From: Chloroflexota bacterium | GTDB lineage: Bacteria > Chloroflexota > Limnocylindria > Limnocylindrales > CSP1-4 | DNA length: 64,000 nucleotides | Reading direction: 5' to 3' | NCBI GenBank assembly: GCA_021802825.1 | Contig: JAJZRG010000005.1 | Location: 62,001-126,000 of the forward strand | Shown here: piece by piece, positions 24,375 through 40,609 of the stretch | Position numbering within the stretch: the stretch's first letter is position 1 | How the letters are laid out: every line of letters begins with the position of its first letter | Translations under genes and position numbers: made by a program | Notes under the pieces: model-generated | Seen by the model: the letters and a program-made list of their open reading frames with translations, nothing else | Told to the model about the DNA's origin: nothing | The model's database searches: none

Positions 24375-26030
24375 CTACCGGCGGCGCCTCTTGCGGTCCG
24401 CCAGCACCTCGCGAGCCGCGTTCCGTCCGGGCGCCCCGGTGACGCCGCCCCCCGGGTGTGCGCCCGAGCCCGCGAGGTACAGCCCGCTCACGGGCATCCG
24501 GTAGCGCGCCCAGCCGAGGAGTGGCCGCCACAGCCAGAACGAGTCGAGCGCCGGCTCCGCGTGCATCGGGTGGCCGCCGGTGAGCCCGAACTCGCGCTCG
24601 AGGTCGGCGGGCGTGAGCACCTGGCGCGTGGTGACGCGCGAGGAGATCCCGGGCGCCACGCCCTCGAGCGAGCGGAGCACCGCGTCGCCAACCGCGTCGC
24701 GCTGCGCGTCCCAGTCGCCCGCCGACAGCCCCGACGGCATCCACTGGGCGATCACGCTCATCACGTGCGTGCCCTCGGGCGCGCCCGCCACGAGCGACGG
24801 GTCCACCAGCGACGGGATCGTCGCCTCGAGCACGGGCTGCTCGGCGAAGCGCCCGTACTTCGACGCGTCGAAGGCGTGCTCCATCGCGTCGATCGAGCTC
24901 GTCCCGACCTGGATCCGGCCGCGCAGGAGCCGCACGTCGCCGCCCGCCGCGGGGAACTCGGGCAGCCCGTCGAGCACGAGGTTGACCTTCGCCGAGACCG
25001 CCGGCGTGCGGATGTTCCCGGCCCGCCAGCGCATGTGCGGCCCCACGGCGACGGGATCGACGAGGGAGGTCAGCAGGCGCTTGGGGTCGATGCCGGACAC
25101 CACGGCCGGGGCCGCGATCTCCTCGCCGGTGTCGAGCACGACGCCCGTGACCGCCCCGTCCGACGTCGCCACGGACGCCACCCGGGCTCCCGTCCGGATC
25201 TCCGCGCCGGCGATGCGGGCGGCCCACGCCAGCGCCTCGGAGACGGCCGACGGCCCGCCCTTCGCGAACACCGTCTCGCCCACCCCGCCGCTGTCCGTGC
25301 CGGCGGCGTCGGCAAGCAGGACCGACGTGGAGCCGGCCGACCAGGGCCCCATCGCCGTGTGGCGGACGCCACGCCAGGCGGTGGTCGCGCGGATCGCCTC
25401 GGTCACGAACGACTCGGCCACGAAGTCGGCGACCGCCATCGCGAGGACCCGCAGGATCGTCCGCCCGTCCTCGCGACCCATGCCCCGGAAGGCGCGGGCC
25501 AGCCGCAGGCCCATCAGCGCGTCGCCGGCGCGGGGCCCCCCGATGTCGGGCGGCGTCTGCTCGCCGATGTCCCCGAGGAACTTGGACAGCGAACGGACCC
25601 GCCGGTCGAACTCGACGAAGGCGGTCGCGTCGTCGTCGGACCACGCGCGCAGTGACTCCACGCTCCTGCCCAGGTCGGCCCACAGGGTCACGGCGCGGCC
25701 GTCCGGCTGGGGGGCGAAGACGCGGACCTCGGGCGACACGAGCGCCATCCCGTGGCCGCCCAGGTCGAGCTCGCGGGCCACCGCCGGGCGCAGCCGGCCC
25801 ACCGTGTGGGCGAGCGTCGGCACCCGGACGCCGGGCGCGATCTCCTCGGTCACGGCCGCGCCGCCAACCCGGTCGCGGGCCTCGAGGACCAGGACCCGCT
25901 GCCCGACGCGGGCGAGGTACGCAGCGGCGGTCAGCCCGTTGTGGCCGCCGCCGATGACGATGATGTCATAGGTTCCCCAGGCGGGGGCCGGCGAGGTCGA
26001 AGTCGAGGTCGTCGTCAAAGTCGTGGTCAT
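24375..26030 (-). CDS. PYROXD2-like FAD-dependent oxidoreductase (copy A)
   Basis: The 551-residue product has an N-terminal dinucleotide-binding motif DIIVIGGGHNGLTAAAYLARVGQRVLVLEARDRVGG-type region (residues about 20-55), a PYROXD2/phytoene-desaturase-like core, and a C-terminal FAD-contact GLYLAGSGAHPGGGVTGAPGRNAA. Family reactions are poorly defined. The first 18 residues are almost all Thr/Ser. It follows copy B with a single base between, so the two are one operon. Copy A is the more divergent of the two. Confidence 0.88.
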   Translation of the reverse strand: MTTTLTTTSTSTSPAPAWGTYDIIVIGGGHNGLTAAAYLARVGQRVLVLEARDRVGGAAVTEEIAPGVRVPTLAHTVGRLRPAVARELDLGGHGMALVSPEVRVFAPQPDGRAVTLWADLGRSVESLRAWSDDDATAFVEFDRRVRSLSKFLGDIGEQTPPDIGGPRAGDALMGLRLARAFRGMGREDGRTILRVLAMAVADFVAESFVTEAIRATTAWRGVRHTAMGPWSAGSTSVLLADAAGTDSGGVGETVFAKGGPSAVSEALAWAARIAGAEIRTGARVASVATSDGAVTGVVLDTGEEIAAPAVVSGIDPKRLLTSLVDPVAVGPHMRWRAGNIRTPAVSAKVNLVLDGLPEFPAAGGDVRLLRGRIQVGTSSIDAMEHAFDASKYGRFAEQPVLEATIPSLVDPSLVAGAPEGTHVMSVIAQWMPSGLSAGDWDAQRDAVGDAVLRSLEGVAPGISSRVTTRQVLTPADLEREFGLTGGHPMHAEPALDSFWLWRPLLGWARYRMPVSGLYLAGSGAHPGGGVTGAPGRNAAREVLADRKRRRR

Positions 26031-26031
26031 G

Positions 26032-27654
26032 TCAGGCCACCTTCCGGCCGCGGTGCTTGAGGACCTCGAGCGCGGCCAGCCGCCCGTTGGCGCCCATCAG
26101 GCCGCCGCCGGGATGGGTGGACGAGCCCGAAAGGTACAGGTTCTGCACGGGTGTCGTGAACCGCGCGTAGCCGGGCACGGGCCGGTTGAAGAACAGCTGC
26201 TCGAGTGACAGCTCGCCCTGGAAGATGTTCCCCTCGGTCAGGCCCATCGTGCGCTCGATGTCGAGCGGGGTCAGGACCTGGCGGCCGATGATGATGTCCC
26301 GGATGTTGGGCGCGAACTCCGCGATCCGGTTGATGACCGCGTCGCCAAACGCCTCGCGCTGGTCGTCCCAGGTGCCCAGCTCGGGGGCCAGCTTGTAGGG
26401 CGCGTACTGGACGAAGCACGAGATCACGTGCTTGCCCGGCGGCGCCATCTGGGGGTCCACCAGCGTCGGGATGATCATGTCAACGTACGGGCGCTGGCTG
26501 AACCGGCCGTACTTCGCGTCGTCGTACGCCTGCTCCATCTCGGTGGTGTCGGGGCTGAACGAGATCGCGCCGCGGAGGTGCTCGCCCTCACCCGGGAGGG
26601 ACGTGAAGTCCGGCAGCCGGTCGACGGCCAGGTTGACCTTCCCCGAGCTCCCGCGGAACTTGAAGCGGCGGACCTCCTGCTCGAACTGGGGGTCGAGCGA
26701 GCCGGGCTCGAGGAGGTCGAGGAAGGTGACCTTCGCGTCGGCGGAGCTGAGCACGACGCTCGCCTCGATCTCCTCGCCGCTCTCGAGCGCGACGCCAGTG
26801 GCGCGGCCGTGCTTGACCACGATCCTCGCGACCGGCGCCTCGGTGCGGATCTCGGTGCCCAGCGCCTGCGCGGCGCGGGCGATCGCGTACGACACGCCGC
26901 CGGTGCCGCCCTTGGGGATGCCCCAGGCGCGGAAGGCGCCGTCGATCTCGCCCATGTAGTGGTGGAGCAGCACATAGGCCGTTCCCGGCGAGCGGATGCC
27001 CTGGTAGGTGCCGATGATCCCCGACGCCGACATCGTCGCCTTGAGCGGCTCGGTCTCGAACCACTGGTCGAGGAAGTCCTTGGCCGACATCGTCATCAGC
27101 TGGACGAACACCGCCTGTTGGCGCTCGGGCAGTTGCGCGAAGCGGCGGGCGAGGCTCGCGATCGGGAGCAGGGGCCGCGGGTCGTTCTCGGTGGGGTCGC
27201 CCGGGACGATGCCCAGGATGGGCTTGATGAAGCGGGCCATCTCCACCATGAGCTGGCCGTACTCCTCGTACGCCTCGGCGTCGCTCTTCGACCACCGGCG
27301 CAACTCGCGGACCGTGCGCCCGTGGTCGTTGACGCGCCACAGGTAGTCGCCCCCGGGCGGCGTCCTGTCGATGCCCTTGCGCAGCGGGGTGAACGTGCCG
27401 TCGAGGGGCAGGATGTCGAGGCCGTAACGGGGCAGGTTGAGGTCGCGGATGATCTCGGGCCGCAGCAGGCTCACGACGTAGCTCGCGACCGAGAAGCGGA
27501 ACCCCGGGATGATCTCCTCGGTGACGGCCGCGCCGCCCAGGACGTGCCGCCGCTCGAGGACGAGCGTCTTGAGGCCGGCCCTGGCCAGGTAGGCCGCGGA
27601 CACGAGCCCGTTGTGCCCGCCGCCGATGATGACCGCGTCGTAGCGCTGGGGCAC
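26032..27654 (-). CDS. PYROXD2-like FAD-dependent oxidoreductase (copy B)
   Basis: The 540-residue product has DAVIIGGGHNGLVSAAYLARAG, LVLERRHVLGGAAVTEEI and a C-terminal NLYLSGSSTHPGGGLMGANGRLAA FAD site. Sequence follows the PYROXD2 group closely across its length. Start is GTG (GTG-CCC-CAG) with GGAGGG upstream. The promoter region, 46 bases upstream, carries the TGCAT-N7-ATGCA palindrome also found before the GcvT-like/M20 operon at 32.4 kb. Confidence 0.9.
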   Translation of the reverse strand: MPQRYDAVIIGGGHNGLVSAAYLARAGLKTLVLERRHVLGGAAVTEEIIPGFRFSVASYVVSLLRPEIIRDLNLPRYGLDILPLDGTFTPLRKGIDRTPPGGDYLWRVNDHGRTVRELRRWSKSDAEAYEEYGQLMVEMARFIKPILGIVPGDPTENDPRPLLPIASLARRFAQLPERQQAVFVQLMTMSAKDFLDQWFETEPLKATMSASGIIGTYQGIRSPGTAYVLLHHYMGEIDGAFRAWGIPKGGTGGVSYAIARAAQALGTEIRTEAPVARIVVKHGRATGVALESGEEIEASVVLSSADAKVTFLDLLEPGSLDPQFEQEVRRFKFRGSSGKVNLAVDRLPDFTSLPGEGEHLRGAISFSPDTTEMEQAYDDAKYGRFSQRPYVDMIIPTLVDPQMAPPGKHVISCFVQYAPYKLAPELGTWDDQREAFGDAVINRIAEFAPNIRDIIIGRQVLTPLDIERTMGLTEGNIFQGELSLEQLFFNRPVPGYARFTTPVQNLYLSGSSTHPGGGLMGANGRLAALEVLKHRGRKVA

Positions 27655-27699
27655 CCCACCCTCCGTTCGGGACGCGCGGCCTCGCGGCCGCTATTCAGC

Positions 27700-27722
27700 C
27701 TGCATGGAATTGATGCAGTCTA
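27700..27722 (-). promoter_or_regulatory. Palindromic operator and -10 of the PYROXD2 operon
   Basis: CTGCAT-N7-ATGCAG (27700-27718) is a perfect 6-base inverted repeat with a 7-base spacer. On the minus strand TAGACT (27717-27722) in GCTAGACTGC lies at its upstream edge, so transcription would begin inside the palindrome, as expected for repression by a dimeric regulator. A matching element with the same spacer lies at 32428-32444. Confidence 0.65.
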
Positions 27723-27943
27723 GCCGAGGATGGCCGGGGCGTCGGGCCCGGGATCGCGGAGCGGGCCGGCGCTCCCGGCACGAGTTGCGCGCGGCACGAC
27801 TCGCATCAGAGTTGGATCGGACTGCGGCACGCTCAGGTCGAGCGCAGAGTCGCCGTTTCGCCCCCGGGCCACGTTCCAAGACGGCCGAATCAACCCCGCC
27901 GTGAATAGGACGCTGGCGACGATGGACGTCTACCACCCGCCTC

Positions 27944-28626
27944 ATGGAGAAAGCGTCCCGATACGATGGCCTGGCGGCGCGGTACGACGCCTTCGTCAAC
28001 TCGACCGACCTCACAACGGTTGAGCTCGACTCGCTGGGGCGGCTGCTGGGCGAGGGGCCGGGCCGGTGCCTCGACCTCGGGTGCGGTACGGGCATCGCTT
28101 TCGCCACCCTGAATCGCCTTCACTGGTCGATCGTGGGCGTTGACCTCTCGGCGGACCAGCCCGCCGTGGCCGGCGAGCGTGCCGAGCCAGTTGGGGCCGA
28201 GCTGCATCAGGCCGATGCCGCGCACCTGCCGCTCGCCGCCGACTCGTTCGACGCCGTCGTGTCGCTCGCGACGCACACCGACTTTGAGGATGCCGCCGCC
28301 GCTTTCGCCGAATCCGCCCGCGTCCTCCGTCCGGGCGCCGCTTCGTCTATGTCGGCATCCACCCCTGCTTCGCAAGCCCCAAGGTCGAGCGCCGAACCGA
28401 CGAGCCGCACCTCCTCCATCCTGGCTATTGGCGACGCGGTTGGTGGCATGAGGCGCCCGGATTCCGCTACGGCCGAAATGGCGTCCGCGGGGGCGTCGGC
28501 GTGAACCACCTGCCGCTGGCCGATTTCCTCAACGCGATTCTCGACGCAGGCCTCCGACTCGAACACGTCGAGGAGCCCGGGGACGAGGACTACCCCTTGC
28601 TGCTGGGGCTCCGCGCCGTCCGCTGA
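27944..28626 (+). pseudogene. SAM-dependent methyltransferase with a one-base frameshift
   Basis: From ATG 27944 the frame encodes a class I methyltransferase start: RYDGLAARYDAFV, CLDLGCGTGIAFATL, VVSLATHTDFED, ESARVLRPG. After GGC at 28334-28336 the frame turns to Ser/Ala-rich noise ending at 28504. In the frame that lacks one base, homologous sequence resumes at 28339 (RFVYVGIHPCFASPKVERR), through GYWRRGWWHEAPGFRYGRNG and HLPLADFLNAILDAGL, ending with TGA at 28624-28626. A lost G in GGC-GGC-CGC explains it. It is either a recent pseudogene or a sequencing error. Confidence 0.85.
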
Positions 28627-28643
28627 GCCAACCGAGCTGCGGC

Positions 28644-31592
28644 CTACCAGCCCTCGCGCAGCGTCCGAGCCAGAGCCTCGACGACCAGGTCCGCGCTGCG
28701 CCGGTCGATGCACAGCGGCGGCTTCACCTTGAGCACGTTGTTGCCGTCAGCGGTGGGCTGGACGATCACGCCCAGCTCCAGCATCCGCTCGCAGATCGCG
28801 AGCGCCTCCGCGCCGGCCGGCTCGAGGGTCGCCCTGTCACGGACCAGCTCCACCCCCAGGTACAGCCCCATCCCGTGGACCGCACCGACGATCTCGGGGT
28901 GGGCGGCAGCCACCTGCTCGAGCCCCGCCCTGAGGTGCGCCCCGACGTCCCTGGCGTTCTCGCGCAGCCCCTCGCGATCGATCGTCTCGAGCACCGCGAG
29001 GCCCGCCGCGCACGCCACCGGCGAGCCGCCGACGGACGAGAAGAACGATCCCTCGGCCGCGAACGCGTCGGCGATCGCCCGCGTCGTCACGACCGCGCCG
29101 ACGGCCATGCCGTTCCCCGCCGCCTTGGCAACGGTCACGATGTCCGGCACGACGCCCTGCTGCTCGAACGCCCACTGGTAGGAGCCGAGGCGAGAGTAGC
29201 CGGTCTGGACCTCGTCCGCGATCGCGAGGCCGCCCGCGCCTCGGATCGCTGCATACGCCTCGCGCAAGTACCCGTCGGGCAGGACGACGCCGCCCGCGTT
29301 GCCATAGAGGGGCTCGGCGATGAAGGCGGACGGGCGCCGGCCGGCCGCGCCCAGGCGAGCGACCGTGGCCCGCACGTCATCGGCGTACCGGGTGCCCGCG
29401 TCGGGCCCGCGATGGAGCCCGCGGAATGTGTTCGGCGGCTCCACCGGGTGCACCCAGCCCGGCCGCGTCCCCAGCGCCCGCGGGTTGTCGAGGGCCGAGG
29501 TGCTGATCGCGTCGGTCGCGCTCGTCCAGCCGTGGTAGGCGCCGCGGACGCAGAGCACGTCGTGGGCGCCCGTGGCCGTTCGCGCGAGCCGGAGCGCGAG
29601 CTCGTTCGCCTCGGAGCCCGTGTTGACGAGGAAGACCGTGTCCAGCGGGGCCGGGAAGCGAGCGGCGAGCGCCTCCGCGAACTCGACGATGACGCCGTAG
29701 AGGAACCGCGAGTTGGTGTTCAGCCGACGCAGCCGGCGTGCGACCGCCTCCTCGACCGCGGGGTGGCTGTGGCCGAGCACGGCGACGTTGTTGACGATGT
29801 CGACGTAGGCCCGGCCACGGGTGTCGACGAGGTGGTGGCGCCAGCCGCGCTCGATCGTGGGCGGGACGTCGAAGTAGTGGACCTGGACGCCGGCGAGCAC
29901 GCGGTCGCGGCGGCCGAGCAGCCGGCGCGGGTCGTCCGGCGGGGCCGCAGCCGAGCCGTGCCGCAGGCCGGCGAACTCGGACGGGTCGGGGCAGAGCGCC
30001 AGCCAGGCGCCCTCGAGCGACGGCACCGCGCGACGGGGCGCGTCGAGCCCCGGCACGGTGACCAGTTGCACGTGCACGTGGGGCGGGAGGCCGTCGAGGC
30101 CCGCAGGCGCGATCTCGCCGATGGGTTCGCCGGCGGCGAGCTCCGCCCCGTCCGCCGCGCTCGGGGAGATCCCCTCGAGCCGGAGGTCGGCGCCCTCGAA
30201 GCCGATGACCACCCCGTCGGGAACCAGCCGAACCCTTCCGGCGGCCGGCGCCCGGACCGGGGTCCCCGGCGCGCCGAAGCAGTCCACGCCCAGGTGGACG
30301 CTGGGCGCCTCGTCGATCGCATCCGGGACCGCGTCCACGAGCCTGCCCTCGCCCCAGCGCCCCAGGGCCGGCCCCGAGGCTCCGCCGAGAAGCCGCGCGA
30401 CCGCCGACAGATCGCCGGTCGCCGACGCCGCCAGCGCGTCGCTCGTCGTCGAGAGGTCCAGCACCACGACGTTCGCCGGCAGCTCGACGGGCGCGACCGG
30501 AGGCCGCGTGGGGATCGGCACCCGCCTCGCGGGCCCCAGCCCTGCCGCCGCGCGCAGCACCTCCGTCGCCAGCACCGGGGGCACGCCGGCCACGACCTCG
30601 AGCGCCGCCCACTCCTCATCGCGCACCGAGGCGACGTAGCTGTTCTCCGGCTCGAGCGCCGCCTGCTGGTCCCCGCTCACCGCGACGGCCGCCGCCCTGG
30701 CCACCACCATCGGCCAGACCGCCTCGAGTTCCGCCTCCTCGAGCGGGAGCAGCGGGAGGAAGCCCGTTGCCACCTCGCGTGCGGTCCGGAGCGGCCGGTC
30801 CAGGTCGCGCAGCACGTCCGCCGCGATCGTGACAGCCAGCTCCGCGGCCAGCCAGGTCCGCGACAGGTCCCCGAAATCGATCAGCCCGACGGGCATCGGG
30901 CGGCCAGCCGCGTCGCGGCGGGTGACCGTGTTCACGTCGGTCACGTCCTGATGGACGGTTCGGATCCGCTGCGCCGCGGACAGGGAGGTCAGCGCCTGGG
31001 CGGCACGGGTCGCGGCCCCCTCGGCTGCGAGCCGCCGGGCCGGGGAGCTGGCGAACGGCGCCAGGGCCTCAACGACGCTGCGGGCATGGCGGATGTCCCA
31101 CTGCAGAGCGCGGTCGAGCGCCGGGTGGTCGAAGCCGTCGAGCGCGATCGCGATCCGCGCGGCCATCGCGCCGTGTGCGCGGAGGACCGCTGGTGCGAGG
31201 TAGCCGGCGCGATCGAGCGGCTCCCCGTCGATCCAGGTCACCAGGCGCAGGTCGTGCGCCGCCCCGGAGGTCGTCGTCGCCCGCACGATCAGAGATCCGT
31301 CGGGAGCGGGCTGCGGCACCGGGACCTCGAACGGCAGGCCCATCGCCGCCACCCGGAGCATCGCGGCGTTCTCCGCCTCGAGCGCCGGCCGCCCGAGCCC
31401 CTCACGCGCCACCTTGAGCACGAACCGCGCCCCGCCTCGCGTCTCGACCAGGTAGTTGCGGTCCTGGTGGCTGCCGAGCTCCCGCAGCTTCCCGTCCACG
31501 CCGAACGCCTCGCGCAGGAGGGTCGCCGCCTCGACGGCGTCCACGTCTGGCCGCCGGTGCTCGTGGCCGAGAAACGGGTTCGCACTCGTCAT
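28644..31592 (-). CDS. Kinase (APH) / M23-like / class III aminotransferase fusion protein
   Basis: The 982-residue protein has three parts. Residues about 1-345 are an aminoglycoside-phosphotransferase-type kinase: Lys60, the HxDxxxxN loop at His214-Asp216-Asn221 and the metal Asp239 in LIDFGD. Residues about 345-555 contain an M23-like domain with HLGVD and HVHVQ, its usual metal ligands. Residues about 560-982 are a fold-type I class III aminotransferase with NTGSEANELALRLAR, AYHGWTS, IADEVQTGYSR and the PLP lysine in VAKAAGNG. Kinase plus class III PLP enzyme resembles the human pair HYKK and PHYKPL/ETNPPL, where a hydroxylated amine is phosphorylated and then split by a phospholyase. I infer a similar two-step amine catabolism. 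Confidence 0.85.
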   Translation of the reverse strand: MTSANPFLGHEHRRPDVDAVEAATLLREAFGVDGKLRELGSHQDRNYLVETRGGARFVLKVAREGLGRPALEAENAAMLRVAAMGLPFEVPVPQPAPDGSLIVRATTTSGAAHDLRLVTWIDGEPLDRAGYLAPAVLRAHGAMAARIAIALDGFDHPALDRALQWDIRHARSVVEALAPFASSPARRLAAEGAATRAAQALTSLSAAQRIRTVHQDVTDVNTVTRRDAAGRPMPVGLIDFGDLSRTWLAAELAVTIAADVLRDLDRPLRTAREVATGFLPLLPLEEAELEAVWPMVVARAAAVAVSGDQQAALEPENSYVASVRDEEWAALEVVAGVPPVLATEVLRAAAGLGPARRVPIPTRPPVAPVELPANVVVLDLSTTSDALAASATGDLSAVARLLGGASGPALGRWGEGRLVDAVPDAIDEAPSVHLGVDCFGAPGTPVRAPAAGRVRLVPDGVVIGFEGADLRLEGISPSAADGAELAAGEPIGEIAPAGLDGLPPHVHVQLVTVPGLDAPRRAVPSLEGAWLALCPDPSEFAGLRHGSAAAPPDDPRRLLGRRDRVLAGVQVHYFDVPPTIERGWRHHLVDTRGRAYVDIVNNVAVLGHSHPAVEEAVARRLRRLNTNSRFLYGVIVEFAEALAARFPAPLDTVFLVNTGSEANELALRLARTATGAHDVLCVRGAYHGWTSATDAISTSALDNPRALGTRPGWVHPVEPPNTFRGLHRGPDAGTRYADDVRATVARLGAAGRRPSAFIAEPLYGNAGGVVLPDGYLREAYAAIRGAGGLAIADEVQTGYSRLGSYQWAFEQQGVVPDIVTVAKAAGNGMAVGAVVTTRAIADAFAAEGSFFSSVGGSPVACAAGLAVLETIDREGLRENARDVGAHLRAGLEQVAAAHPEIVGAVHGMGLYLGVELVRDRATLEPAGAEALAICERMLELGVIVQPTADGNNVLKVKPPLCIDRRSADLVVEALARTLREGW

Positions 31593-31763
31593 GCGCCCAA
31601 TCCTCGCAGGTGCGTGGCACGGCGCGGGCGCTCGTACCCCCCAGCCGGGCCACGGGCGCTAGCATCGTGGGGCGCGGCCATCGGCGGCGCCGAGATGTGC
31701 GGCACGCCGCCCGGCCTGCCCCGTGGCGACACGCACCGCTGCCAATCGTGATCCGGAGGCCCG

Positions 31764-32387
31764 ATGCCGCTCCCCGACCCGCATCTGTTCGATGCCAAGG
31801 CGGCCGACTGGGACAGCCCGGTGCACGTCGAGCGGGCCATCGCCATCGCGCGCTCGATCCGGTCCGCCGTTCCGGTCACGGGTGCCACCCGAGTCATCGA
31901 GGTGGGCGCGGGGACGGGCCTGCTCGGCAGGGCGCTGGCGCCCCACGTCGGCTCGGTCCTGATCACGGACCCGTCCACCGGGATGCTCCGCGCCGCGGAC
32001 GAGGCACTGACGGCCAACGGCATCGCCAACGCCCGGACGCGCCGTTTCGACCTCGAGGCCGACCCGGTGCCGGGGGAGCGCTTCGATCTCGCCGTCAGCC
32101 TGATGGCCCTGCACCACGTGCTCGACACGGATGCCGCGCTGGCGCGCCTCGCCGCGATGCTGGAACCTGGCGGCTGGCTTGCGGTGGCGGATCTCGATGC
32201 GGAGGACGGCTCCTTCCACGTCGACCCCGAGGAGCGGGCGATCGTGCTGCCCGGTCACGACCGAGATCAGCTCGGGGCGCGAGCGGTGGCGGCAGGCTTC
32301 GTCGACGTCACGTTCTCCGACGTCTGGCAGATCCCGAAGAACGACCGGGTCTACCAGGTGTTCCTGCTCGTGGCACGCCGACCGTAG
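31764..32387 (+). CDS. Class I SAM-dependent methyltransferase
   Basis: The 207-residue protein has the SAM motifs VIEVGAGTGLLGRAL (motif I), ITDPSTGML (motif II), FDLAVSLMALHHVLD (motif IV) and LEPGGWLAVADLD (post-motif). Residues 1-40 (FDAKAADWDSP) resemble UbiE/COQ5-like enzymes that act on small molecules. CCGGAGG precedes the ATG. It is intact, unlike the frameshifted methyltransferase 3 kb upstream. Confidence 0.87.
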   Translation: MPLPDPHLFDAKAADWDSPVHVERAIAIARSIRSAVPVTGATRVIEVGAGTGLLGRALAPHVGSVLITDPSTGMLRAADEALTANGIANARTRRFDLEADPVPGERFDLAVSLMALHHVLDTDAALARLAAMLEPGGWLAVADLDAEDGSFHVDPEERAIVLPGHDRDQLGARAVAAGFVDVTFSDVWQIPKNDRVYQVFLLVARRP

Positions 32388-32427
32388 CCCCCCGCGCTCG
32401 CTCCGGCCTGCCCGCGGGCATCCAGCC

Positions 32428-32444
32428 TGCATAGTTCTCATGCA
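32428..32444 (+). promoter_or_regulatory. Palindromic operator of the GcvT-like/M20 operon
   Basis: TGCAT-N7-ATGCA, the same arms and spacer as the element at 27700-27718; both are also preceded by cagcc. A -10 candidate CATACT (32443-32448) overlaps its right arm. The start codon lies 33 bases downstream. Confidence 0.65.
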
Positions 32445-32477
32445 TACTGCCCGGGTCATCATCCCAGGAGGTCCCCC

Positions 32478-33668
32478 GTGAGCGTCGGCACCCCGTTCCA
32501 TCCCCGTGCCGCGGCCCTGAATCGCAAGATGCAGTGGCGCGAGTGGTCCGGCTACTGGGCGTCCTCGGTCTACGCCGACTTCCACGACATCGAGTACAAC
32601 GCGATCCGCGAGGCCGCGGCCGTCATCGACGTCAGCCCCCTGTACAAGTACCGGCTGACCGGCCCGGATGCGCTGCGGCTCACGGACCGGGTCATCACCC
32701 GCGACGCGACCAAGCTCGCAGTCGGGCAGGTGTACTACACGCCGTGGTGCGATGAGCACGGCAAGGTCATCGACGACGGGACCGTGCACCGGGTGGGCGA
32801 GCAGGAGATCCGCTGGACGGCCGCCGACCCGCAGTACCGCTGGCTGACCCTCAACGCCGCAGGGCTCGACGTGACCGTCGAGGACGTCTCCGAGTCGGTC
32901 GCGACGCTTGCCCTGCAGGGGCCCTTCAGCCGCGCTGTGCTCGAGGCGGCAACGGGCGAGAGCTTCGCCGACCTTCGCTACTTCCGGCGCCGCGCCAGCC
33001 AGGTCGGCGGCGTGGCCATCGACGTGAGCCGGACGGGCTACACCGGCGACCTGGGCTACGAGCTGTGGATCCCCGCCGAGGCGGCGTCAGAGGTCTGGGA
33101 CCGGCTGTTCGAGGTCGGCAAGGCGTACGCCATCCGGCCCGCCGGGATGCTCGCGCTCGACGTCGTGCGCCTTGAGGCGGGTCTGGTCCTGCTCGAGGTG
33201 GACTACACGTCGGCGCGCCACGCCATGAACCCGGAGCAGAACTACAGCCCGGCCGAGATCGGCCTCGGGCGACTCGTCAACCTGGACAAAGCCGACTTCG
33301 TGGGCAAGCGCGCGCTCGCCGCGGAGGCCGCCGCAGGCGGTCCAGCCCGACGCCTCGTCGGCCTCCAGCTCGACTGGCACGACATCGAGGCCCTGTTCGA
33401 TGCCCAGGGCCTGCCGCCCGCCGTCTCGCCCACCGTGGACCGCTCGCCGGTGCCGGTGTTCGCCGGCGGCAGCCAGGTCGGCAAGGCGACCTCGCACGGC
33501 TGGAGCCCCATCCTCAAGCAGGCGATCGCACTCGCCTCGGTCCCGGCGCGCTTCGAGCGGACCGGGACGCGCCTCGCGGTCGAGTGGACCGTCGAGGGGC
33601 GCCGCGGCAGGGTTGGAGCGACGGTGGTGGGGCTGCCGTTCCTCGACCTCGAGCGCAAGCGCGCGTGA
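32478..33668 (+). CDS. GcvT-like aminomethyltransferase family protein
   Basis: The 396-residue product has the folate-binding GcvT/DmdA fold: AAVIDVSPLYKYRLTGPDA, LALQGPFSRAVLE, SRTGYTGDLGYELWIP and AGMLALDVVRLEAGL. The C-terminal barrel domain ends VVGLPFLDLERKRA. Residue features separate it from a textbook glycine-cleavage T protein and no gcvH or gcvP is near, so it probably demethylates another amine with tetrahydrofolate. GTG start with AGGAGG 8 bases upstream; TGATG overlap with the M20 gene. Confidence 0.85.
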   Translation: MSVGTPFHPRAAALNRKMQWREWSGYWASSVYADFHDIEYNAIREAAAVIDVSPLYKYRLTGPDALRLTDRVITRDATKLAVGQVYYTPWCDEHGKVIDDGTVHRVGEQEIRWTAADPQYRWLTLNAAGLDVTVEDVSESVATLALQGPFSRAVLEAATGESFADLRYFRRRASQVGGVAIDVSRTGYTGDLGYELWIPAEAASEVWDRLFEVGKAYAIRPAGMLALDVVRLEAGLVLLEVDYTSARHAMNPEQNYSPAEIGLGRLVNLDKADFVGKRALAAEAAAGGPARRLVGLQLDWHDIEALFDAQGLPPAVSPTVDRSPVPVFAGGSQVGKATSHGWSPILKQAIALASVPARFERTGTRLAVEWTVEGRRGRVGATVVGLPFLDLERKRA

Positions 33669-35092
33669 TGGGCTCCGACGCGCCCGGAGGGCCCGGCCCC
33701 GACGCCTCCGGTCCGGACCCCTGGGCCGCGTTCGACGCGCTGGTCGCCGAGCGCCTGCCGGCGTGGACCAAGGAGCTGATCGAGTACCTCTCCATCCCCT
33801 CGGAGGGCGGGGACGCGGCGTCGCTGGCCGATGCCGCCGCGTGGACCGCCGGCCGCCTCGAGCGCGCCGGCGCATCGGTCGAAGTCATCGCTCTCGACGG
33901 CGTCCCGCCGCTGGTCGTGGGCGAGCTGGGCGAGGGGCAGCGCACCATCAACGCCGTTCAGCACTACGACGTCCAGCCGGCCGAGCCGTTCGAGCTGTGG
34001 ACGACGCCGCCGTATGCGCCCCATGTCCGCGACGGGCGCGTGTGGGCGCGCGGCGCCACCGACAACAAGGGTGAGTTCCTGCCCCGCCTGTGGGCGCTCG
34101 AGGCCTATCGGGAGGCCATCGGCCCTCTCCCCTGCCGGGTCCGGTTCCTCGTGGAGGGCCAGGAGGAGACCGGCTCGGGCGCACTCGACGACCTCCTCGA
34201 CCGGGCACCGCGGCTGCGCGAGGCCGACGCGGCGCTGATCGAGGGCGGCGGGCTCGACCTGAACGGGCGCCCGAGCGTCGTCGGTGGCGGCAAGGGCATC
34301 GTCGTGTTCGAGCTCTACGCCAGGACGATGGCCCACGACGCGCACTCGAGCCTGTCGGTGCTGCTCCCCAACGCCGGCCACCGGCTGGTCGGCGCGCTCG
34401 CGACGTTCTGGGATGCGGGCGGCCGGCCGGCGATCGCGGGGCTCGACGCCGGCAAGCGGCCGCCGACTGCGGCACAGCTCGCGGTGATCGCGGCCCAGGA
34501 CCAGCAGGACCTCGCCGACATTCGCGCCGACTGGGCCGTGGACCGCTTCATCGGCGGGCTCGACGGGGTGGCCGCGATGGAGGCGCTGACGTTCCAGACG
34601 ACCCTCAACCTCCAGGGCCTGTGGGCCGGCCACACCGAGCCGACGCCCAAGACTGTGACCCCGGCCGAGGCGCACGCCCGGCTCGACGTGCGGATCGTCC
34701 CGGACCAGGAGCCCGACGAGGTGCTCGCGGCCGTCCGCCGACACCTCGACGCCCAAGGGTTCGCCGACATCGAGGTCCGCAAGCGCGAGGGCGAGCCAGC
34801 CTGGTGGACGGGCCCCGACCACGTCGTCGTGACGACCGCAGCAGCCGTGTCCTCGGAGGTGGCCGGGCTGGAGACCACGCTCGGGGTGTCGATGGCCGGG
34901 ACCGTCCCGATGGCGCAGGTCTGCGCCCGCCACCGCGTCCCGTGCACGACGCTGGGCGCCGGCCGCGCGGACTGCCGAGCGCACGCGCCCGACGAGAACA
35001 TCCGGCTCGACGATCTGGCGGCCGCGGCGAGGATGATGGGCCGCTTCGTCGCCACCTTCGCGCGCCTGCCCGAGGTCCCGCGAGTCCCCTGA
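33668..35092 (+). CDS. M20 family metallopeptidase
   Basis: The 474-residue product has the M20 dinuclear zinc motifs: QHYDVQPAEPF, ARGATDNKG, EGQEETGSG and a dimerisation domain with AHDAHSSLSV. Total length and order match dipeptidase-type (CNDP-like) M20 enzymes, which cleave dipeptides or N-acyl amino acids. The ATG overlaps the GcvT-like stop (TGATG), so the pair is translated together. Confidence 0.88.
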   Translation: MGSDAPGGPGPDASGPDPWAAFDALVAERLPAWTKELIEYLSIPSEGGDAASLADAAAWTAGRLERAGASVEVIALDGVPPLVVGELGEGQRTINAVQHYDVQPAEPFELWTTPPYAPHVRDGRVWARGATDNKGEFLPRLWALEAYREAIGPLPCRVRFLVEGQEETGSGALDDLLDRAPRLREADAALIEGGGLDLNGRPSVVGGGKGIVVFELYARTMAHDAHSSLSVLLPNAGHRLVGALATFWDAGGRPAIAGLDAGKRPPTAAQLAVIAAQDQQDLADIRADWAVDRFIGGLDGVAAMEALTFQTTLNLQGLWAGHTEPTPKTVTPAEAHARLDVRIVPDQEPDEVLAAVRRHLDAQGFADIEVRKREGEPAWWTGPDHVVVTTAAAVSSEVAGLETTLGVSMAGTVPMAQVCARHRVPCTTLGAGRADCRAHAPDENIRLDDLAAAARMMGRFVATFARLPEVPRVP

Positions 35093-39505: not shown

Positions 39506-40609
39506 ATGGAGCTCGCTCGACGGACCCGATGGATCGCCTACTCCCTGCCGGTCGCGCTGGCGGCCGTCGCGGCACTGGCCAGACCGGCACCGCCCGGCGC
39601 CCTCGCGGCCGCGGGCGCCATGCCGGAGCGAGGGTGCGCCCTCGCTGGCGAGGCGAACGCCCGCGGAACCTTGGACGGCGCCCCGGCCTGGTACCGGCTG
39701 GAGCCGCTGCTCGACGGGACGGGGACGCTCGTGGGCCGGCAGCTCACTGCGGGACGCGGCACGGCGCGCTGGACGGCACAGCTGTCGCCCGAATCGTTCG
39801 CCTCGGGCCCCGTGGGCGGGCGCGTGCTGGTGGGCGACGATGACGGGCGCCGATCACGCCTCCGCGTGCTGGACACCGTTCGCGGCTGCTGGTCCGTGGT
39901 CGGCACCGAGGCGGGCGTGATCCGCAGCGCGCTCCTCACCAGCGACGCCGCCGGCGTGTACGAACACCGGGTGGACCGCGCCACCCGGCGCGACCTCGGG
40001 GTGTTCCTCCGCGAGATCCGCGGGTCCGGCGCGCCCCGCCAGGTGGCCGCTGGGCTGGAGGCGGACGCGGTCCACGGGCCCACCTTCTCCACAACGCTGC
40101 TGCTGGGTGATGACGGGCAGCTCGCAGTGAGCTCCTGCGGGGAGCGGGCGTGCCGGACGCGCGTGGTGAACCCCGCGACCGGCGCCGCCTCTCCGATCCG
40201 AGAGACGGGCCCCGCGGCCGGAGTTGTCGGCGCCCAGCTTGTTGCCCCCGAGCCGTGCGAGGGGCTCCCCTGCCCGATGCAGGTCATCGATGTCGCGTCA
40301 GGCGGCGCCACATCGCTCGGCCCGGTGATGGGCCCGGCCGTGCTGGCCCCGGACGGCTCCGGCGCTGTGGTCCTCCCAGCCGAGAACGGCCTGCGCGTCG
40401 CCCGCCCGGATGACCCGGCCCGCTCCGCAGCGGTGCCCGGAACGCGGGACCTCGCCCCGATCGCCCGGACGTCCACGAGCGAGACGGGCTTCGAAGGCCC
40501 CGCAGGTCTCGTGGCCGTCGGCCCGGGCGGCAGTGCCGCCGACCCGTCGCTCGTCCGCCTGCTCAACCCCGCCACGCTCCAGCTCACCGCCGGCGAGGTG
40601 CTCCCGTGA
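39506..40609 (+). CDS. Secreted protein of unknown function
   Basis: The 367-residue protein starts MELARRTRWIAYSLPVALAAVAAL, an export signal, after GGAGGAGG. The rest has repeated short strands (GRVLVGDDDG, LLLGDDGQLAVSSCG, PAVLAPDGSGAVVLP) and paired Cys residues, suggesting a beta-propeller-like or sandwich fold. I do not recognise the family. Its stop overlaps the next gene (GTGA), tying it to the protease and lipoprotein behind it. Confidence 0.7.
   Translation: MELARRTRWIAYSLPVALAAVAALARPAPPGALAAAGAMPERGCALAGEANARGTLDGAPAWYRLEPLLDGTGTLVGRQLTAGRGTARWTAQLSPESFASGPVGGRVLVGDDDGRRSRLRVLDTVRGCWSVVGTEAGVIRSALLTSDAAGVYEHRVDRATRRDLGVFLREIRGSGAPRQVAAGLEADAVHGPTFSTTLLLGDDGQLAVSSCGERACRTRVVNPATGAASPIRETGPAAGVVGAQLVAPEPCEGLPCPMQVIDVASGGATSLGPVMGPAVLAPDGSGAVVLPAENGLRVARPDDPARSAAVPGTRDLAPIARTSTSETGFEGPAGLVAVGPGGSAADPSLVRLLNPATLQLTAGEVLP

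What the first reader, a model, noticed from the sequence alone, without database searches (positions are those of the whole stretch)
27700..32444. One palindrome, TGCAT-N7-ATGCA, marks two operons in the 24-35 kb cluster
The elements at 27700-27718 (before the PYROXD2-like pair) and 32428-32444 (before the GcvT-like/M20 pair) have the same arms, the same 7-base spacer, a shared cagcc flank, and both touch a -10 hexamer. I did not see a third copy by eye, and both sites sit at promoters of a cluster of flavoproteins, a folate-dependent demethylase-like protein, a peptidase and a kinase/aminotransferase fusion. That suggests one regulator controlling a two-part catabolic pathway for a methylated or hydroxylated amine. 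No regulator gene is in the window.
Basis: partly seen in the sequence, partly recalled or inferred. Interest (0 to 1): 0.75.

Follow-up and report, generated by a model that had tools for sequence, protein, structure and literature searches.

The report
Shared DNA switch for lysine genes
A short DNA sign in front of two gene groups also stands in front of lysine-breakdown genes elsewhere in the same genome and in relatives, so it is very probably the docking site of one lysine-related control protein that has yet to be identified.

Summary
The two palindromes are the only exact TGCAT-N7-ATGCA copies found in the 3.93 Mb genome (0.4 expected). The real motif has a third half-site: ATnCA-N3-TGCATA-N5-TATGCA. 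In 30 related genomes, 65 of 67 places matching its 14 letters with at most one mismatch lie directly before one of four genes: lysine 2,3-aminomutase, a class-III aminotransferase heading a CoA-transferase operon, or this window's first flavoprotein or GcvT-like gene; about one is expected by chance. The own genome has one-mismatch sites before its aminomutase and aminotransferase, and a weak, genus-conserved one upstream of dapB-dapA-dapD. So 'one regulator, two operons' is right but too small: a lysine regulon, most likely under a repressor, whose regulator was not identified. The most novel reading, that the flavoproteins and the folate-type GcvT-like protein demethylate N-methyl-lysine, rests on co-regulation, similarity to N-demethylases and human PYROXD2 genetics; kinship to PYROXD2 was not tested.

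The parts
27693..27717 (+). Operator 1: ATTCA-gcc-TGCAT-ggaattg-ATGCA (three half-sites), before the flavoprotein pair, which runs on the - strand
   Evidence: matrix score 40.0 against at most 9.7 in 30 Markov-1 windows
27717..27722 (-). -10-like hexamer TAGACT abutting operator 1, reading towards the flavoprotein pair
   Evidence: sequence; 'tagac' precedes TGCAT in 8 of 8 rows of other genus members for this gene
26032..27654 (-).
   Evidence: Pfam; NCBIfam (best CrtO, 298 bits, below its cut-off of 1000)
24375..26030 (-). FAD-dependent oxidoreductase 2, directly after the first
32420..32444 (+). Operator 2: ATCCA-gcc-TGCAT-agttctc-ATGCA, before the GcvT-like gene
   Evidence: matrix score 44.0
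32443..32448 (+). -10-like CATACT; TACT directly after the palindrome is kept in nearly all genus members that keep the site
   Evidence: 9 of 10 have TACT directly after the palindrome; G005 has TATACT
32478..33668 (+). GcvT-like folate-type aminomethyltransferase/demethylase-like protein
   Evidence: Pfam GCV_T 199 bits; best solved relatives TMAO demethylase, T-proteins, dimethylglycine oxidase and dehydrogenase
33584..35092 (+). M20 peptidase, second gene of the GcvT-like operon (the called start overlaps the first gene; the true start is probably further downstream)
28644..31592 (-). Kinase/M23/class-III aminotransferase fusion between the two operons; no motif before it, so not shown to be in the regulon
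   Evidence: NCBIfam NF004800, 1144 bits against a cut-off of 973; window scan

Best explanation
The palindromes are operators of one sequence-specific DNA-binding regulator, most likely a repressor that senses lysine or a lysine derivative. The site is three half-sites, ATnCA-N3-TGCATA-N5-TATGCA. It stands before lysine 2,3-aminomutase, an aminotransferase/CoA-transferase operon, the flavoprotein pair and the GcvT-like/M20 operon, and in some genomes upstream of the dapB-dapA-dapD lysine biosynthesis operon. In several relatives the flavoprotein and GcvT-like genes are divergent over a single shared site. In this genus the two operons have mostly moved apart and each kept one copy in the same orientation, which explains why both window sites read the same way although their genes point in opposite directions (inferred history). 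Shown: the motif, its rarity, its conservation and its gene set. Inferred: that a protein binds it, that it represses (it covers the start of transcription or touches the -10), and that lysine is the signal. Not known: which protein.
For: Own genome: only two exact palindromes found. Extended motif at up to 2 mismatches: 7 distinct places against 1.5 expected and 0 for the reversed control, 5 of them before the genes named. 30 relatives at up to 1 mismatch: 67 distinct places in 29 genomes, 65 before the four genes; reversed control 2, expectation 1.0. Sets fetched by protein, not by site: 10 of 12 genomes of the genus have the palindrome at up to 1 mismatch within 140 bp before the GcvT-like gene, and 16 of 20 aminomutase loci hold one. 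The aminomutase, dapA and dapD are over their NCBIfam cut-offs. In 27 of 31 aminomutase promoters a -10-like hexamer ends 10-30 nt before TGCAT, 16 nt in 16 of them, so the site covers the start of transcription (the hexamers were chosen after seeing the sequences). One shared divergent site in G046, G099, G101, G107 and G010. In G004 and G011 an extra exact extended site stands directly before the CoA-transferase gene.
Against: No regulator identified. The flavoprotein and GcvT-like genes lack a recognisable site in the sister family (G025) and in G021, G022 and G023. In 400 genomes of the phylum the exact motif was found in 18 of 33 of the family and, as single hits, in 5 of 367 others. The bare 10-letter palindrome is less specific: of 25 places in the 12 genus genomes, 5 are elsewhere, which is what chance predicts. 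The dapB site scores 17.1, no better than the two misses L395 and L396 (22.6 and 17.0), so its case rests on conservation in 4 of 5 genus genomes. No expression or binding data.
Confidence: 0.8

Rival explanations
1. The regulator is an Lrp/AsnC-type protein: amino-acid responsive, with several dimers sitting on half-sites in phase.
For: ATGCA-N3-TGCAT units recur every 20 bp at the fullest sites. 4 of 5 sister-family genomes examined have exactly one PF01037 gene, and 4 of 8 aminomutase loci of that family hold a one-mismatch site. Lrp control of lysine genes is recalled, not looked up.
Against: Among the 29 Lrp loci fetched, no palindrome or ATGCA-N3-TGCAT at up to one mismatch lies before the regulator gene; single matches elsewhere in L151 and L164. 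None was seen next to a regulon gene. Other regulator families were not surveyed.
Confidence: 0.35
2. The regulator is the small winged-helix-like protein encoded near the aminomutase gene.
For: About 140-aa family without a Pfam family over cut-off, on the same fetched stretch as the aminomutase in 12 genomes; confident AlphaFold model (pLDDT 90); the closest solved folds are mostly winged-helix proteins (best VIA Z 8.0, rmsd 3.4, 99 aligned).
Against: None of the 21 genus-g2 genomes is among the 93 of 126 with a match, although G012 of that genus keeps the site before its aminomutase and G061, G064 and G065 carry sites upstream of dapB-like genes. Present in G015, G042, G022 and G028, where no aminomutase was found. 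No Foldseek match under E 0.001, and Z around 8 can mean only a common arrangement.
Confidence: 0.2
3. The palindrome is an RNA element (hairpin or riboswitch) in the leader.
For: At the aminomutase gene it lies in the predicted leader; lysine riboswitches exist (recalled).
Against: Before the GcvT-like gene it lies upstream of the predicted -10; its orientation is reversed at the flavoprotein pair; one copy can serve two divergent genes; 14 loci gave no credible Rfam match (two sub-threshold eukaryotic families only).
Confidence: 0.03
4. Chance palindromes in a G+C-rich genome.
For: The ten bare letters alone give about 0.4 per genome, and 5 of 25 bare palindromes in the genus stand at unrelated places.
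Against: 65 of 67 matches of the extended motif at four gene families.
Confidence: 0.01

Closest known systems
Arginine repressor boxes (ARG boxes of ArgR; recalled, not looked up)
   Same: TGCAT/ATGCA-type half-sites, pairs in phase at about 20 bp, amino-acid metabolism
   Different: Recalled spacing is TGCAT-N4-ATGCA; here it is N7 with an outer half-site at N3, and the gene set concerns lysine
Lrp/AsnC operators (recalled)
   Same: Amino-acid metabolism, repeated half-sites
   Different: No regulator linked here; the half-site was not matched to any characterised Lrp
TMAO demethylase, dimethylglycine oxidase and dehydrogenase, glycine-cleavage T-protein
   Same: The GcvT-like protein aligns from residue 4 to 395 of 396 with the C-terminal part of TMAO demethylase (187 bits for that stretch) and with T-proteins
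   Different: Here the folate-type protein is a separate gene, tied to CrtO-like flavoproteins by co-regulation and often by neighbourhood; scores lie below every NCBIfam cut-off listed
Human PYROXD2 (orphan flavoprotein; variants associate with N6-methyllysine and N6,N6-dimethyllysine levels: PMC9730628 and PMC7878905, passages seen)
   Different: Kinship was not tested here; the families that score best are CrtO and CrtI, far below their cut-offs

Membership tests
Single-regulator regulon (operator) | Same motif at promoters of functionally related genes, far above chance | tested here: met
Single-regulator regulon (operator) | Conservation before orthologous genes fetched without regard to the site | tested here: met
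   10 of 12 in the genus before the GcvT-like gene; 16 of 20 aminomutase loci, the other four being of the sister family, of which L109 and L110 end before the promoter and L107 and L108 hold two-mismatch copies
Single-regulator regulon (operator) | Cognate regulator known | tested here: inconclusive
   No convincing self-site; only Lrp and one orphan family were surveyed
Lysine regulon | Contains lysine-specific enzymes | tested here: met
   TIGR03820 lysine 2,3-aminomutase, 546.9 bits against a cut-off of 525.4
Lysine regulon | Lysine biosynthesis operon carries the site | tested here: inconclusive
   Of 30 dapA loci: 4 of 5 of the genus and G061 of genus g2; G064 and G065 from the palindrome scan (dapB/dapA named by reading only); no clear site in the rest
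Lysine regulon | Responds to lysine | not testable with these tools
   needs binding or expression data
ARG box (ArgR) | TGCAT-N4-ATGCA spacing (recalled) | tested here: not met
   N7 spacing before GcvT-like and aminomutase genes fetched by protein (the scans looked for N7)
Lysine riboswitch | Match to an Rfam model | tested here: not met
   no such match in 14 loci
Folate-dependent N-demethylase (GcvT-type domain) | GCV_T domain and full-length similarity to demethylases | tested here: met
Folate-dependent N-demethylase (GcvT-type domain) | Demethylation activity and its substrate | not testable with these tools
   assay needed
PYROXD2 family | Closest similarity to PYROXD2 | not tested
   No PYROXD2 entry among the PDB matches listed and no PYROXD2-named model among the 25 best listed per protein; structure prediction without an alignment failed (pLDDT 32)

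The most novel reading that the evidence does not exclude
The flavoprotein pair and the GcvT-like protein form an N-methyl-lysine demethylation module: the flavoproteins oxidise N6-methyl- or N6,N6-dimethyl-lysine released from proteins, the GcvT-like protein passes the methyl carbon to tetrahydrofolate, and the freed lysine enters the co-regulated aminomutase - aminotransferase - CoA-transferase route. If the flavoproteins are true PYROXD2 relatives, this gives a testable chemistry for the orphan human PYROXD2, whose variants associate with methyl-lysine levels.
Probability: 0.3. Interest if true: 0.85.

Novelty: new member of a known kind. Interest (0 to 1): 0.62.

Why it matters
It gives a Chloroflexi-related family, seen here only as genome assemblies, a defined lysine regulon with a sharp operator, so that the unknown regulator could be fished out with one DNA fragment. 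It also places two orphan flavoproteins and a folate-type demethylase-like protein in lysine metabolism, which makes a methyl-lysine demethylation pathway directly testable.

Tried and rejected
Regulator by self-site: extended motif at up to 2 mismatches in the own genome and in 12 genomes. The extra places, with matrix scores: own C8 upstream of a small gene read as secE in a ribosomal-protein cluster (-0.7); own C26 at the start of a small gene that reads as an XRE-type helix-turn-helix with a HipA-like gene behind it (1.4); in relatives L397 5.7, L398 6.3, L399 3.5, L400 8.2, L401 9.0. L399 lies inside a gene that reads as argB, 340 bp before one that reads as ArgR. All are within the background (up to 9.7), so I read them as chance. 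The names in this paragraph come from reading the translations, not from a family search.

Regulator by linkage: clustering of genes around the sites gave no conserved known regulator; one orphan family with a winged-helix-like fold was followed. A MarR gene near the own aminomutase (L132), another in L240 and a GntR/LacI-type gene in L286 were seen only singly. Lrp genes: no self-site.

Riboswitch: rejected. ArgR: spacing does not fit the recalled box.

Structure prediction of flavoprotein 1 without an alignment failed and was not used; an alignment should have been given.

Counts are biased, since most of those loci were fetched because they carry a site, and some called starts run over the site. 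One row there (G043, 4 mismatches) is a wrong start; one search shows an exact site. The unbiased counts are those. In one search, 26 rows were shown, one of them (L020) without usable upstream sequence.

Papers: nine searches ran. Lists were capped and only titles and abstract beginnings were seen, except passages of PMC9730628 and PMC7878905 and a term look-up in PMC8777681. Nothing listed names this regulon or a bacterial methyl-lysine demethylation route; one search found no paper with both Limnocylindrales and regulon. That the family is Limnocylindrales/CSP1-4 is recalled, not shown; the titles of the nearest named records say Chloroflexi only.

Full report
WHAT WAS CHECKED. Both palindromes are in the sequence, at 27701-27717 and 32428-32444. 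The window alone cannot judge them: with two mismatches allowed it holds 11 matches against 8.2 in shuffles. The genome can: the search of its 3.93 Mb gives these two exact copies and no other, against an expected 0.42; a chance pair within 4.7 kb has expectation 0.0002.

THE REAL MOTIF. Sites before homologous genes give tATnCAgnCTGCATAgnnttTATGCA over 86 sites. Those loci were mostly fetched by site, so the ten core letters are fixed by collection; the outer half-site ATnCA and the inner A and T are not. On this matrix, which does not contain the window's two sites, they score 44.0 and 40.0; the next independent place in the window scores -7, and 30 Markov-1 windows at most 9.7.

THE REGULON IN THE OWN GENOME. 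At up to two mismatches the extended motif finds seven distinct places against 1.5 expected; reversed control 0: the two window sites; C42, before lysine 2,3-aminomutase (one mismatch); C7, before a class-III aminotransferase followed by two CoA-transferase subunits (one mismatch, with a second overlapping two-mismatch match); C4, about 290 bp upstream of dapB-dapA-dapD (two mismatches); and two places on C8 and C26 that score as background. Identities: the aminomutase (TIGR03820), dapA and dapD are over NCBIfam cut-offs; dapB is below (102.9 against 122), and the aminotransferase is below the cut-offs of all 25 models shown.

RELATIVES, ONE UNBIASED SCAN. In 30 genomes of the family the motif at up to one mismatch occurs at 67 distinct places in 29 genomes (71 rows, four pairs being the two strands of one place). 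1.0 is expected and the reversed control has two. 65 of the 67 lie directly before the aminomutase, the aminotransferase, the first flavoprotein or the GcvT-like gene (three of them at contig ends or with poorly called genes were settled by tblastn). The two others (L395, L396) are in unrelated coding sequence. The bare 10-letter palindrome is less clean: in the 12 genus genomes it has 25 places. 20 stand before regulon genes (two of these, in G005, look like one locus assembled twice). Among the 20 are two before the CoA-transferase gene itself (G004, G011). 5 are elsewhere, about what chance gives.

RELATIVES, FETCHED BY PROTEIN. Before the GcvT-like gene, 10 of 12 genomes of the genus have the palindrome at up to one mismatch within 140 bp (7 exact, 3 with one). 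G010 shares one site with its divergent flavoprotein gene further upstream, and G008 has a degenerate copy. Outside the genus the site was found before this gene in some genera (for example G013, exact) and not in others, nor in the sister family, where the GcvT-like gene is still divergent from the flavoprotein pair. For the aminomutase, 16 of 20 loci hold a site at up to one mismatch; the other four are of the sister family, two of them ending before the promoter. In 400 genomes of the phylum the exact motif is found in 23: 18 of the 33 family members and 5 of 367 others as single hits, against 8 hits in 6 genomes for the reversed control.

HOW IT WORKS. In 27 of 31 aminomutase promoters a -10-like hexamer, mostly TATGAT or TATCAT, ends 10-30 nt before TGCAT, 16 nt in 16 of them (hexamers chosen after seeing the sequences). 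The site then covers the start of transcription. At the GcvT-like gene it lies just upstream of and touching the predicted -10. At the flavoprotein pair the orientation is reversed. This suits a protein that blocks RNA polymerase. It does not suit an RNA element, and no credible Rfam match was found in 14 loci. Repression and lysine as the signal are inference. In G046, G099, G101, G107 and G010 one site sits between divergent flavoprotein and GcvT-like genes. In most of this genus the operons have separated and each kept a copy in the same orientation; that order of events is inferred.

LYSINE BIOSYNTHESIS. Of the 30 dapA loci, 4 of the 5 of the genus keep TGCATAGAACATATTCA about 290 bp upstream of dapB while its flanks vary. 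The genus-g2 genome G061 has an exact palindrome and ATGCA-N3-TGCAT upstream of dapB. G064 and G065 have similar arrays before genes that read as dapB and dapA. The remaining loci show no clear site; G041 and G046 have a one-mismatch ATGCA-N3-TGCAT there. The own site scores 17.1, no better than the two misses above (22.6, 17.0). This link is suggestive, not settled.

THE REGULATOR. Not found. No convincing self-site, no shared linked regulator. An orphan family of about 140 aa near the aminomutase is predicted as a winged-helix-like fold. But none of the 21 genus-g2 genomes is among the 93 of 126 with a match, and G012 of that genus keeps the aminomutase site. Lrp/AsnC proteins fit by habit of the family only.

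WHAT THE WINDOW OPERONS MAY DO. The GcvT-like protein's best solved relatives are TMAO demethylase, T-proteins, dimethylglycine oxidase and dehydrogenase, and sarcosine oxidase. The second Asp of the T-protein's IIDD (recalled as the catalytic, folate-side residue) is aligned with an Asp. Variants at human PYROXD2 show the strongest association of PMC9730628 with N6,N6-dimethyllysine and also one with N6-methyl-lysine (passages). PMC7878905 lists N6,N6-dimethyllysine, a rare-variant signal that vanished after conditioning on common variants (passages). A look-up of five terms, lysine among them, found none in PMC8777681 on PYROXD2 disease. Co-regulation with lysine genes, a demethylase-like folate protein and this genetics together suggest N-methyl-lysine demethylation. 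The chain has an untested link, so I give it 0.3.

VERDICT. Observation confirmed; interpretation right in kind and too small in extent. A conserved, largely family-restricted lysine regulon with an unidentified regulator.

Noticed in passing
L240:5672-6106 (+) and relatives; own genome L132:10275-10718: Orphan family of about 140 aa near lysine 2,3-aminomutase, no Pfam family over cut-off, predicted winged-helix-like fold with high confidence.
   Followed up: partly
L300, L304, L311: The aldehyde dehydrogenase, CoA-transferase A/B and aminotransferase genes of the regulon lie together in an Oligoflexia, a Udaeobacter and a gammaproteobacterial record, so the route may be widespread.
   Followed up: partly
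window 28644-31592 (-): Kinase/M23/class-III aminotransferase fusion (NF004800, 1144 bits) lies between the two operons but has no motif; possibly another modified-lysine or amine enzyme (inference).
   Followed up: partly
L133 about 6531 (own genome C4): The roughly 290 bp leader before dapB holds a kept TGCATAGAACATATTCA in four of five genus genomes; no credible Rfam match.
   Followed up: partly
L060, L061, L279: In three genus-g2 genomes the region before dapB(-like) genes has both ATGCA-N3-TGCAT and TGCAT-N7-ATGCA, a denser arrangement than at the catabolic operons.
   Followed up: no
L065:6002, L071:1671: In G004 and G011 an additional exact extended site stands directly before the CoA-transferase subunit A gene, inside the aminotransferase gene group.
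   Followed up: partly
window 39902-39991 (-): ARAGORN reports a tRNA-like gene with a four-base anticodon (cgta), probably false.
   Followed up: no
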